Assembly (NCBI RefSeq): GCF_025352645.1
Contig: NZ_JANXSO010000069.1
Span: 1 to 57,463 of the forward strand
Direction of reading: 5' to 3'
Source: Iodobacter sp.
GTDB lineage: Bacteria > Pseudomonadota > Gammaproteobacteria > Burkholderiales > Chitinibacteraceae
Length of the DNA stretch: 57,463 bases
The notes under the pieces are model-generated. The model made no database searches. It was given only the letters and a program-made list of their open reading frames with translations, and was not told where the DNA came from. Every line of letters starts with the position of its first letter. The stretch's first letter is position 1. The position numbers were made by a program, and so were the translations under genes. Below are positions 50,529 to 57,255 of this stretch, in pieces.

Positions 50529-50561
50529 TGGAATGCGGGTGGGCAACGCCCGCGACCCATA

Positions 50562-50606
50562 ACAATACGCCGCCATACCCATATTGGGATGGCGGCGTAT
50601 TGTTTT
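50562..50606 (+). terminator. Terminator of the dpp operon
   Basis: ACAATACGCCGCCAT and ATGGCGGCGTATTGT pair over 15 bases, extended by CCC/GGG across a small bulge, and are followed by TTT. It begins 34 bases past the dppF stop. Confidence 0.88.
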
Positions 50607-50691
50607 GCGGTGAGTCTAAAGGGGTTAGCTTGATTTACTTTTCTTTTGATTTCATCAGCTTTGGCTTGTGGTGGAGCGCTCAATTATCTAC

Positions 50692-50730
50692 AATTATCAA
50701 AAAATCATAATTTATGAAATATTGATAATT
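50692..50730. promoter_or_regulatory. 39-base dyad upstream of the ATPase-GNAT module
   Basis: AATTATCA (50692-50699) and TCATAA (50705-50710) are mirrored around T50711 by TTATGA (50712-50717) and TGATAATT (50723-50730), with equal five-base spacers. CAATTATC at 50691 is repeated ten bases earlier (50681-50688). The dyad ends directly at AAAGG, the ribosome site of the ATPase gene. It is an operator-like site or a leader hairpin. Confidence 0.6.
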
Positions 50731-50743
50731 AAAGGTAATAGCG

Positions 50744-51874
50744 ATGAAGATCTACAGCTATAGACGCCCAAAAGTGGCAGAGATGTATTGTGATGCGCTC
50801 CAAGGGGATAGCTTGGTAGACAAAAGATCCGGCTTATTTCTAACAGCAAAGCGTCGGGTTGGAAAAACTACTTTTTTACGAGAAGATTTACTGCCAGAGG
50901 CAAAACAGCGAGGTTGGCTGGCTGTTTACATTGATTTATGGTCTGACCGATCTCGGGACCCTGCAGAGCTGATCGCCGATGTTGTGAAAGAGACAATCTA
51001 TCAGGAGTCAGGAGCCGTGGCCAAGGCTGCTAAATCAACCGGCCTCAGTAAATTTAGTGTTGCTGGGTTTTCTTTTGATTTTCAGGCCATTGGCTTGCCT
51101 GAAGGGATGACACTATTTCAAGGATTGCAGCTATTACAGCAGCTCACTAAAAAACCAATTCTTTTAATTGTTGATGAAGCTCAGCACGCCTTAATTAGTA
51201 AAGAAGGTGAAGCCAGCATGTTTGCCTTAAAAGCAGCTCGAGATGGAATGAACAACAGTAATGATGCGCCCAAGCTCATGCTGGTTTTTACCGGATCAAA
51301 TCGCGATAAATTGGCTCATTTGGTGATGAGCAGCAAAATGCCATTTTTTGGTTCAAGTGTGATGGATTTTCCGATGTTGAATCGTGAGTTCACCGATGGC
51401 TATACCGCGCATATTAATAAAAGTTTGGCCTCGGACAATCAGCTAGATCCAAATGCCGTTTGGGATACCTTTCAATTAGTGGGCTATCGACCTGAATTTT
51501 TACGCAGCATTATCAGTGATGTTGCTTTGGAGATGCAGTCTGCTCCTGACTTGAATCAAAAAATTCAAGCGGGCGGCACTTTATTGCAAAGTCGAATTTG
51601 GGCTGAAATTGAAAATGAATACACATCTCTTTCGGCATTACAGCAGGCGATTATTCGGGTGATGTCGGTTCAACATGGCCAATTTAGCCCATTCAGTGCC
51701 AGCTCAATGGCTGAATATGGTGCGGTCGCTCAAGGGCTATCAACGGGATCTATTCAAACTGCTTTGGATGCCTTACGAGAGCGTGGCATTGTATGGAAGG
51801 AGTCGCGCGGTGCCTATGAATTGGAAGATGAATCATGGAATACATGGCTTAAGATGAAGAATATTGTTGATTAA
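50744..51874 (+). CDS. AAA-type ATPase with C-terminal winged helix, function unknown
   Basis: The 376-aa protein is a P-loop ATPase of the archaeal-type/ORC-like AAA group. Walker A is AKRRVGKTT (35-43) and Walker B is ILLIVDEAQH (139-148). A sensor-1 strand, LMLVFTGSNRDK, follows near 180. Residues about 300-370 look like a winged helix (SALQQAIIRVM, then TALDALRERGIVW and RGAYELED). Such proteins occur in defence, plasmid or mobile contexts as well as in unexplained chromosomal pairs. No signal peptide or membrane helix. AAAGG eight bases before the ATG is a good site. It is followed 17 bases later by a GNAT gene. Role unknown. Confidence 0.8.
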   Translation: MKIYSYRRPKVAEMYCDALQGDSLVDKRSGLFLTAKRRVGKTTFLREDLLPEAKQRGWLAVYIDLWSDRSRDPAELIADVVKETIYQESGAVAKAAKSTGLSKFSVAGFSFDFQAIGLPEGMTLFQGLQLLQQLTKKPILLIVDEAQHALISKEGEASMFALKAARDGMNNSNDAPKLMLVFTGSNRDKLAHLVMSSKMPFFGSSVMDFPMLNREFTDGYTAHINKSLASDNQLDPNAVWDTFQLVGYRPEFLRSIISDVALEMQSAPDLNQKIQAGGTLLQSRIWAEIENEYTSLSALQQAIIRVMSVQHGQFSPFSASSMAEYGAVAQGLSTGSIQTALDALRERGIVWKESRGAYELEDESWNTWLKMKNIVD

Positions 51875-51891
51875 TTTACTGAATTTTTCTA

Positions 51892-52671
51892 ATGCCAATA
51901 GATCGCCAATCCCCAAACGCTGATTTAAAAAATCATAGTTTTGCATTTTGGCAGTCGGCCTTAGGGCTAACAAATGCAGAAATGCTTTGCTCTCAACATG
52001 TAATTAGCCATCTCGGGCATTATTTATCTAAATCAGATGAGCAGTCGATTTTTCATTTTACTCACTTAGCAAATGGCAAACAGGTGCTTGCGCTGCCAGA
52101 GAAAATACGGCCATTGCTTGCTTCAATCGATTTAAATGAAAATCGCACACTGATTGATGCCGCAATCCTAGCTGCGGGGTTTGTAGAGCAATATCGTGAT
52201 ATTGACTATCACCTTGAGCAGATTAATTCGTTGAAGCGCATAAATAATAGTATTCAACACCTAAATTCTAACTCGCCGCTATTTAAAGGGTTGCTACCTG
52301 ATTTTTTACGCCAGCAAACGGCAGAAGACCGCGATATTTTAGATTTGGAAGAGGACGACGAGGCCATTGCTCTTGTGGCGGATGGCGCGATACAGGCCAT
52401 TGCCCGTTATGTGCCATTAAAATTGTCCCCCTTAATCGCGGACATTACGGTTTTGGTGAGCCCACTTGCAAGACAAGGGCAACTAGCGACGATGGTGGTA
52501 TCCCGTCTTTGCGAGCTAATTCTTAGCCGTGGCTTGATTCCCAGATATCGAGTGGCTCATCATCATTCTGCAAGTATTAAAGTTGCAGAAAAGTTGGGTT
52601 TTACACCCCAATTTACTATTACGGCTTGGCGGATTAAGGCTGGGGATTCACCTTCCAACATAAATGCTTAA
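51892..52671 (+). CDS. GNAT-fold acetyltransferase with extra N-terminal domain
   Basis: In this 259-aa protein, the last 80 residues (about 175-250) look like the end of a GNAT domain. ADITVLVSPLARQGQLATMVVSRL gives strand 4 and a helix with a modified pyrophosphate loop (RQGQLA in place of Q/RxxGxG/A). HHHSASIKVAEKLGF is the conserved C-terminal helix. The first 165 residues are acidic, helical and not recognised. It is paired with the ATPase gene with no evident ribosome site, suggesting coupled translation. Substrate unknown; a target on a macromolecule or the partner ATPase is only a guess. Confidence 0.7.
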   Translation: MPIDRQSPNADLKNHSFAFWQSALGLTNAEMLCSQHVISHLGHYLSKSDEQSIFHFTHLANGKQVLALPEKIRPLLASIDLNENRTLIDAAILAAGFVEQYRDIDYHLEQINSLKRINNSIQHLNSNSPLFKGLLPDFLRQQTAEDRDILDLEEDDEAIALVADGAIQAIARYVPLKLSPLIADITVLVSPLARQGQLATMVVSRLCELILSRGLIPRYRVAHHHSASIKVAEKLGFTPQFTITAWRIKAGDSPSNINA

Positions 52672-52710
52672 GTATGAGGCCCGAGGCTCGTTTTCTTCTA
52701 TGTACTCATG

Positions 52711-52740
52711 CGCGTGGGCACAAAGGCGTGCCCACCCTAC
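52711..52740. repeat. Short palindrome of the CCCACCCTAC family
   Basis: GTGGGCAC (52714-52721) pairs with GTGCCCAC (52728-52735), followed by CCTAC. It is equivalent to the right half of the element at 48450-48532. It lies between the GNAT and helicase genes. A second small hairpin, CTGTCC...GGACAG, is at 52749-52769. Confidence 0.6.
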
Positions 52741-52819
52741 ATTGCATCCTGTCCTATCCACAGGGACAGCTCCCGCCATCTCGCTTATACTTCGGCCCTT
52801 ATATTATCTAAGGCCCATC

Positions 52820-56343: not shown

Positions 56344-57255
56344 ATGAATTCAAGGACGCTAAGAGCTGTATCGCGGGATATCGTGCGTGAACTGGGTGTG
56401 TTTGCTAAGAAATGCGGCAAGGTGGAGCTTAGCCCTGTTGAGGCGCATATTTTGATTGAGCTGGAAAGCGCTAGCCTCACAAGTTTGCAATTGGTCGAGC
56501 GCTTGCGCATTGATAAATCCAATGCCAGCCGAGTTTTACAAAAAATGCTAGAGCAGGGTTTGATTGAGTGGCAGGCGCATCTCAGTGATAAAAGAAGTAA
56601 GCAGGCCGTGCTAACCCTGATGGGTAAAGAGCTATTACAGGCGGTGCATGGGCAATATGATGGCGAAATTAATCAGGTTCTACAGCAGCTAAGCCATGCC
56701 GAGCAGCAGGCTTTGGAGGCGGGTTTAGTTTTGTATCGGCAAGCTTTAGTCAAAGCCCGTACCCAGCAAGGCTATCAAATCCGCCGAATGTTAGAGGCGG
56801 ATAATCAAGGTGTAGCGGCGGTGATTCGCCAAGTATCGGCAGAGCACGGCTTGAGCGCGGCTCAGGGTTATGGCGTGGCAGACCCGCATTTGGATCAACT
56901 TTATCCATGCTATCAGCAGGCAGGCGCTGCTTATTGGGTAATTCAAAAGGATGCTGGTGAGCTACTTGGTGGTGCAGGTATTGCTCCGCTAGCGGGCGCT
57001 GTGGGATCAGTATGCGAGTTACAAAAGATGTATTTATTAAGCAGTAGCCGAGGTTTAGGTTTTGGCCAACGTTTGCTTAATATTGCCTGTGATTTTGCAA
57101 AGCAGGCGGGGTATCAGCAGTGCTATCTGGAAACCACGGCCAGCTTACCGGCAGCGCTCAACCTGTATAAAAAAATGGGCTTTAGGCAAATTGCTGAGGC
57201 TATGGGCGACACCGGCCATCACTCTTGCGAGATTTTTATGCTGAAGGATCTGTAA
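56344..57255 (+). CDS. MarR-type regulator fused to GNAT acetyltransferase
   Basis: In this 303-aa fusion, residues about 1-145 are a MarR winged helix, with SPVEAHILIELES, recognition region RLRIDKSNASRVLQKM, and wing HLSDKRSKQAVLTLMGKEL. Residues about 150-303 are a GNAT domain with SSSRGLGFGQRLL as acetyl-CoA loop and YKKMGFRQ near the end. Such fusions are known; the acetyltransferase substrate is usually a small ligand or unknown. A perfect 33-base dyad stands before the start. No Shine-Dalgarno is visible. Confidence 0.92.
   Translation: MNSRTLRAVSRDIVRELGVFAKKCGKVELSPVEAHILIELESASLTSLQLVERLRIDKSNASRVLQKMLEQGLIEWQAHLSDKRSKQAVLTLMGKELLQAVHGQYDGEINQVLQQLSHAEQQALEAGLVLYRQALVKARTQQGYQIRRMLEADNQGVAAVIRQVSAEHGLSAAQGYGVADPHLDQLYPCYQQAGAAYWVIQKDAGELLGGAGIAPLAGAVGSVCELQKMYLLSSSRGLGFGQRLLNIACDFAKQAGYQQCYLETTASLPAALNLYKKMGFRQIAEAMGDTGHHSCEIFMLKDL

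What the first reader, a model, noticed from the sequence alone, without database searches (positions are those of the whole stretch)
50681..52671. Two-gene AAA ATPase - GNAT module with a 39-base symmetric control site
An ORC-like ATPase with a winged helix is paired with a GNAT enzyme that has a new 165-residue N-terminal domain and an altered acetyl-CoA loop. A near-perfect dyad abuts the ribosome site, and a direct half-site repeat lies ten bases upstream. The module sits between a terminated operon and an unrelated helicase, flanked by palindromic repeats, like a mobile or accessory insertion. An energy-driven switch plus a modifying enzyme could be a stress, regulatory or defence device. 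This is the best candidate here for an undescribed system.
Basis: partly seen in the sequence, partly recalled or inferred. Interest (0 to 1): 0.72.

Follow-up and report, generated by a model that had tools for sequence, protein, structure and literature searches.

The report
Self-regulated solitary ATPase beside unrelated gene
The two genes are not a conserved pair, but the ATPase belongs to a scattered family whose members often carry their own private, evenly spaced set of DNA repeats just before the gene, which looks like a built-in self-control switch.

Summary
In detail: an intact 376-residue AAA+ ATPase gene (50744-51874), a 259-residue GNAT-like gene 17 bases downstream, and a 39-base dyad (16 of 19 pairs) before the ATPase. 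The "two-gene module" does not hold. Both intact genes occur together in 1 of 43 genomes of the family. One sister genome keeps the ATPase (99%) but only the first bases of the GNAT before an IS3-like insertion; another keeps the GNAT (86%) but only the dyad and about five ATPase codons. The downstream palindrome is a 59-copy genome repeat.

The dyad is the surprise. Homologous ATPases, many under 30% identical, carry repeats in the same place with different half-sites, in helical phase (direct repeats 10, 19 or 29 bp apart): 29 of 46 non-redundant homologues (shuffles 3.9; other promoters of the same loci 16 of 111; AT-rich ones 12 of 50), replicated in a hold-out (13 of 17; shuffles 1.9). 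In the family's genomes this dyad pattern occurs only at this locus. The ATPase resembles SSO1545 (2fna) and has no recurrent neighbour. Best reading: an accessory ATPase that binds a private phased operator and controls its own transcription; trigger and output unknown.

The parts
50558..50607 (.). Hairpin (25-nt arms, 88% complementary) after the ABC-transporter operon
   Evidence: not listed by the terminator scan
50681..50700 (+). Two direct half-sites CAATTATC, 10 bp apart, upstream part of the phased array
   Evidence: kept in sister genomes
50692..50730 (.). 39-base dyad: inner TCATAATTTATGA, outer AATTATCAA / TTGATAATT; core of the probable operator
   Evidence: 16 of 19 pairs; conserved in G320, G322, G325, and in G326 with one extra base
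50744..51874 (+). AAA+ ATPase with C-terminal winged-helix-like region, SSO1545-like
   Evidence: dN/dS 0.025-0.027
51892..52671 (+). GNAT-like gene, separate accessory gene, probably co-transcribed (inferred from the 17-base gap)
   Evidence: dN/dS 0.18
52714..52735 (.). Copy of a genome-wide palindromic repeat, not a module boundary
   Evidence: 59 copies in the own genome, up to 2 mismatches

Best explanation
The ATPase is a solitary accessory AAA+/STAND-like regulator that controls its own gene. Shown: the gene is intact and under strong purifying selection; members of the family with different half-sites often carry, directly before their own start codon, copies of a half-site in helical phase (one recurrent layout: an inverted pair, then direct copies about 19 and 29 bp on); in the genomes of this family the window's dyad pattern occurs only at this locus. 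Inferred: the C-terminal winged helix binds the half-sites; ATP-dependent oligomers load side by side on one face of the DNA; occupancy blocks the promoter and so represses the gene; a signal that changes the nucleotide state (ligand, partner, or DNA damage or invasion) releases it and gives a burst of the ATPase. The output is unknown. The GNAT is a separate accessory gene, not needed by the ATPase.
For: Phased direct repeats at 10, 19 or 29 bp in 29 of 46 homologues (shuffle mean 3.9, max 10 of 300), 16 of 111 other promoters of the same loci and 12 of 50 AT-rich ones; hold-out 13 of 17 (shuffle mean 1.9, max 7); off-phase spacings 3 of 46. Half-sites differ between members, and between the two homologues of the window's genome. 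Window dyad pattern in 4 of 43 family genomes, one locus each. Profile match to 2fna, E 2.2e-9, over ATPase and winged-helix region. Published SSO1545-like ATPase IniR binds and induces a promoter (PMC5760070, passages).
Against: Half-site similarity does not track winged-helix similarity in 39 members (rho 0.06, p 0.15). 17 of 46 and 4 of 17 lack such a repeat. AT-rich control promoters reach 24%. The sigma-70 scan found no promoter-like site in the dyad region, so overlap with the promoter is assumed. The dyad survives in two genomes that lost the ATPase. Start codons were assigned by rule, some doubtful. No binding data.
Confidence: 0.6

Rival explanations
1. The repeats are a promoter or DNA-curvature feature, or sites for some other host protein, and not the operator of the ATPase.
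For: The arrays are AT-rich and many half-sites resemble -10 words; AT-rich control promoters also score, 12 of 50; the dyad survives loss of the ATPase in two genomes; no covariation with the winged helix.
Against: Half-sites differ between members and between two homologues in one genome; some are not A-tracts (GATTACGT, ACAGCAAT); 29 of 46 against 12 of 50 AT-rich controls, p 1.7e-4; one locus per genome.
Confidence: 0.25
2. The array is iteron-like and the ATPase an Orc1/Cdc6-like initiator or plasmid-maintenance factor.
For: Repeats beside an AAA+ winged-helix gene; homologues in 130 of 72,556 plasmid records; one of 21 members hits the orc1/cdc6 model, E 0.003.
Against: Many homologues are on chromosomal-looking contigs; one plasmid carries an annotated replication initiation gene and ParB of its own near the homologue.
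Confidence: 0.07
3. One reading: ATPase and GNAT form one two-gene stress or defence device under one dyad.
For: 17-base spacing; traces of the pair in G322 and G326 show the adjacency is older than the window's genome.
Against: Both intact in 1 of 43; GNAT in 1 of 300 of the order against 29 for the ATPase; each kept without the other; no recurrent GNAT neighbour.
Confidence: 0.05

Closest known systems
SSO1545 (PDB 2fna), archaeal AAA+ ATPase
   Same: Full-length profile match, P-loop to winged-helix region, E 2.2e-9; 11 of 21 members also match Pfam ATPase_2
   Different: The window protein alone has no PDB sequence match; an operator for SSO1545 was not examined
IniR (mycobacterial promoter-binding ATPase, PMC5760070)
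   Same: SSO1545-like ATPase domain plus C-terminal DNA-binding domain; binds and induces a promoter (passages)
   Different: 818 aa with a MalT-like sensor domain; acts on iniBAC, whereas the array here precedes the ATPase's own gene
PF12746 GNAT_acetyltran (for the downstream gene)
   Same: C-terminal match in register with the model, similar total length
   Different: Altered A-loop; N-terminal part not recognised
PADLOC mad8 / PDC models
   Same: 7 of 21 ATPase members match mad8, best E 1.7e-4
   Different: Weak; the window protein itself has no match at 0.01 (PDC-S27 at E 0.016); no recurrent neighbour genes

Membership tests
SSO1545-like / ATPase_2-type AAA+ ATPases | P-loop ATPase core | tested here: met
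   AAA_22 in 21 of 21, AAA_14 in 20 of 21, ATPase_2 in 11 of 21 members; the window protein meets AAA_22 but has no listed ATPase_2 match
SSO1545-like / ATPase_2-type AAA+ ATPases | C-terminal winged helix | tested here: inconclusive
   Profile alignment to 2fna runs into the C-terminal region; model secondary structure fits but pLDDT is 38.2
Autoregulated DNA-binding regulators | Operator beside own gene | tested here: met
   Phased repeats 29 of 46 and 13 of 17, as sequence evidence only
Autoregulated DNA-binding regulators | The protein binds that site and changes expression | not testable with these tools
   Needs binding and reporter assays
Two-gene AAA-GNAT system | Conserved co-occurrence | tested here: not met
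   1 of 43 in the family; 1 of 300 in the order for the GNAT
Known anti-phage system | Match to a defence model or defence neighbourhood | tested here: inconclusive
   Weak matches only for the family; scattered neighbour matches
PF12746 GNAT | Profile above cut-off | tested here: met
   27.8 bits against 26
PF12746 GNAT | Acetyltransferase fold and activity | tested here: inconclusive
   Fold model pLDDT 33.9 from 2 sequences; activity not testable here

The most novel reading that the evidence does not exclude
A family of solitary, horizontally scattered AAA+ ATPases in which each copy carries its own private operator: a helically phased array read by its own winged helix, probably as an ATP-controlled oligomer laid along one face of the DNA. 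Fast divergence of the half-sites keeps copies in one cell from cross-talking, as expected of an immune or selfish switch that must stay silent until triggered.
Probability: 0.3. Interest if true: 0.75.

Novelty: new variant of a known kind. Interest (0 to 1): 0.5.

Why it matters
If right, it turns a scattered set of 'hypothetical' or 'ATP-binding' proteins into a testable class: each gene shows its own DNA target beside it, so binding, ATP dependence and the trigger can be assayed directly, and members can be sought by the array as well as by weak protein similarity. It also removes a false lead, since the AAA-GNAT pair need not be chased as a system.

Tried and rejected
Obligate AAA-GNAT module: rejected. 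Insertion bounded by palindromes: rejected, the downstream palindrome is a genome-wide repeat.

Defence island: not supported, not excluded. PADLOC matched 43 models among 78 neighbour proteins, of which 25 were shown: PDC-S01 (2 proteins, down to E 3e-170), a type II methyltransferase, an RT-associated helicase, ShosT and others once each; RtcR- and UvrD-like matches are probably housekeeping. Two sister genomes hold, by eye, an XRE gene and type III restriction-modification genes in the same interval.

Phage origin: no ATPase match in 50,697 phage records or in three viral-contig scans; no GNAT match in viral contigs or plasmids.

Structure models of both proteins were too poor, so no fold search was run. 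Half-site against winged-helix covariation: no signal. Copy-number test of repeated 8-mers: combined p 2.5e-10, 14 of 46 below 0.05 singly. Shuffle tests treat homologues as independent, which they are not fully (cut at 75% identity). Control promoters come from ORFs picked by rule, not annotation; the first control run (17 of 114, AT-rich 14 of 56) included regions overlapping the arrays and was replaced, where the AT-rich cut was also 0.46 GC instead of 0.48. One search's homologue extraction missed most loci and was replaced.

Error of mine: the DEAD-helicase query was translated out of frame, so its identities mean nothing. The DNA just before the helicase matched by nucleotide in 7 of 8 sister loci; in G320 the fetched stretch gave no match.

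Literature: (held PMC library only; search listings) showed no paper whose title or abstract start describes such arrays before SSO1545-like ATPases; of PMC5760070 I read passages. The SSO1545 structure paper is not held.

Full report
WHAT IS THERE. The window holds an ATPase ORF at 50744-51874 (376 aa) and a GNAT-like ORF at 51892-52671 (259 aa), same strand, 17 bases apart. The ATPase just passes Pfam AAA_22; the GNAT just passes PF12746 and Acetyltransf_1 over its C-terminal part. NCBIfam names neither above a cut-off. The dyad 50692-50730 pairs at 16 of 19 positions; a random 215-bp spacer of the same AT-rich make-up reaches that in 0.4% of 3000 trials, while three other places in the window score 16 or 17. 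Two CAATTATC half-sites 10 bp apart lie at its upstream edge. No sigma-70-like promoter was found there by a simple scan.

THE PAIR IS NOT A MODULE. In 300 genomes of the order the ATPase has homologues in 29 and the GNAT in 1, the window's own. In the 43 genomes held of the family, ATPase homologues of any kind are in 16, the close orthologue (96% or more) in 3 (G000, G320, G322), the GNAT in 2 (G000, G326), and both intact together in 1. G326's contig has the same length as the Lake Pavin MAG record JAPLQI010000001.1 found and is taken as the same genome. In a phylum sample the GNAT matches 2 of 398, the second weak and partial.

The interval between the ABC-transporter operon and the helicase differs among the nine genomes of the genus: ATPase plus GNAT (window); ATPase plus an IS3-like insertion (G322); ATPase, then an XRE gene and type III restriction-modification-like genes (G320; the helicase is not in the stretch fetched); the dyad with the first codons of the ATPase, then the same kind of genes (G325); a kinase-like gene, the dyad with the first ATPase codons, then the GNAT (G326); and in four others (G321, G323, G324, G327) neither gene nor the dyad pattern at this place. 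Names of these other neighbours are by eye. G322 keeps only the first bases of the GNAT frame before the IS-like insertion. So the two genes stood side by side in an ancestor of some lineages, and each has been lost while the other stayed. Kept copies are under selection: dN/dS 0.025-0.027 for the ATPase, 0.18 for the GNAT; part of that time may predate the losses.

THE ATPASE FAMILY. A profile of 21 members finds one solved structure, 2fna (SSO1545), E 2.2e-9, aligned through the ATPase core into the winged-helix region. Members are scattered: 29 of 300 genomes (order), 12 of 398 (phylum), 21 of 369 (class, with member L009 as query), 130 of 72,556 plasmid records, 0 of 50,697 phage records. 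They have no recurrent partner: of 78 neighbour proteins scanned (of 123 listed) no Pfam family is matched by more than 3 (phage integrase), and no acetyltransferase family by 2 or more; the call showed 25 of 114 families, ordered by number. On pQBR103 an N-acetyltransferase is annotated about 4.5 kb downstream of the homologue. Defence models match the family only weakly (mad8 in 7 of 21, best E 1.7e-4).

THE ARRAYS. Lining up the bases before the start codon of homologues showed repeated words in many, different from member to member but in a similar layout. I took 69 loci plus the window; seven loci were dropped (four for short or edge-cut frames, three for no usable match), leaving 63 rows, 46 after a 75% identity cut. 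Counting 8-base words that match at 7 or more of 8: direct repeats 10 bp apart in 19 of 46 (shuffle mean 1.2, maximum 4 of 60), 19 bp apart in 14 of 46 (1.1, 4), 29 bp apart in 8 of 46 (1.2, 6). Any of the three: 29 of 46, shuffle mean 3.9, maximum 10 of 300. Other promoters of the same loci: 16 of 111; AT-rich ones 12 of 50; off-phase spacings 13, 16 or 23: 3 of 46 homologues, 6 of 111 controls. The spacings were chosen on this set, so I tested them unchanged on a hold-out: 25 loci, 20 usable (three short or edge-cut, two no match), 17 after the same cut; 13 of 17, shuffle mean 1.9, maximum 7 of 300. A model search scored 39 of 66 members at 6 or more; the most frequent layout, 8 of 39, is a short inverted pair with direct copies at +19 and +29. 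The window's array is a variant: TCATAATTTATGA, a further half-site GATAAT 18 bp on from CATAAT, and two upstream copies 10 bp apart. Its pattern (up to 3 mismatches) occurs in 4 of 43 family genomes, one locus each, this one; G326 carries it with one extra base. The two ATPase homologues of the window's genome have different arrays.

HOW IT MOST LIKELY WORKS. Member-specific, helix-phased half-sites directly before each member's start codon are best explained as the operator of the member itself (inferred). The winged helix would bind half-sites, the ATPase would couple neighbouring protomers, and occupancy would block expression by default, lifted when the ATPase changes state (inferred). 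IniR, with an SSO1545-like ATPase domain and a DNA-binding domain, is a published case of such an ATPase acting at a promoter (PMC5760070; passages). What the released ATPase does is not known; defence, stress and plasmid maintenance remain open.

WHAT SPEAKS AGAINST. Half-site similarity does not track winged-helix similarity in 39 members (rho 0.06, p 0.15). 17 of 46 homologues and 4 of 17 in the hold-out lack a repeat at the tested spacings. The dyad block persists in two genomes without the ATPase. AT-rich promoters give a background of about a quarter. Start codons were assigned by rule. Neither structure model was usable.

VERDICT.

Noticed in passing
window 50529-52819; L056-L058, L061-L065: Variable spot between the ABC-transporter operon and the DEAD helicase in nine sister genomes; two carry what look by eye like type III restriction-modification genes.
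   Followed up: partly
window 52714-52735: Palindromic repeat GTGGGCAC-N6-GTGCCCAC, 59 copies in the own genome with up to 2 mismatches.
   Followed up: partly
window 56344-57255: Looks by eye like a MarR-type regulator fused to a GNAT domain; not part of the finding.
   Followed up: no
L097 1956-3023: On plasmid pLIB119 an ATPase homologue sits between umuD and a Y-family polymerase gene.
   Followed up: no
L058 and L063 (G326, G325): The dyad and the first ATPase codons stay nearly unchanged although the rest of the ATPase gene is gone; unexplained if the site serves only that gene.
   Followed up: partly
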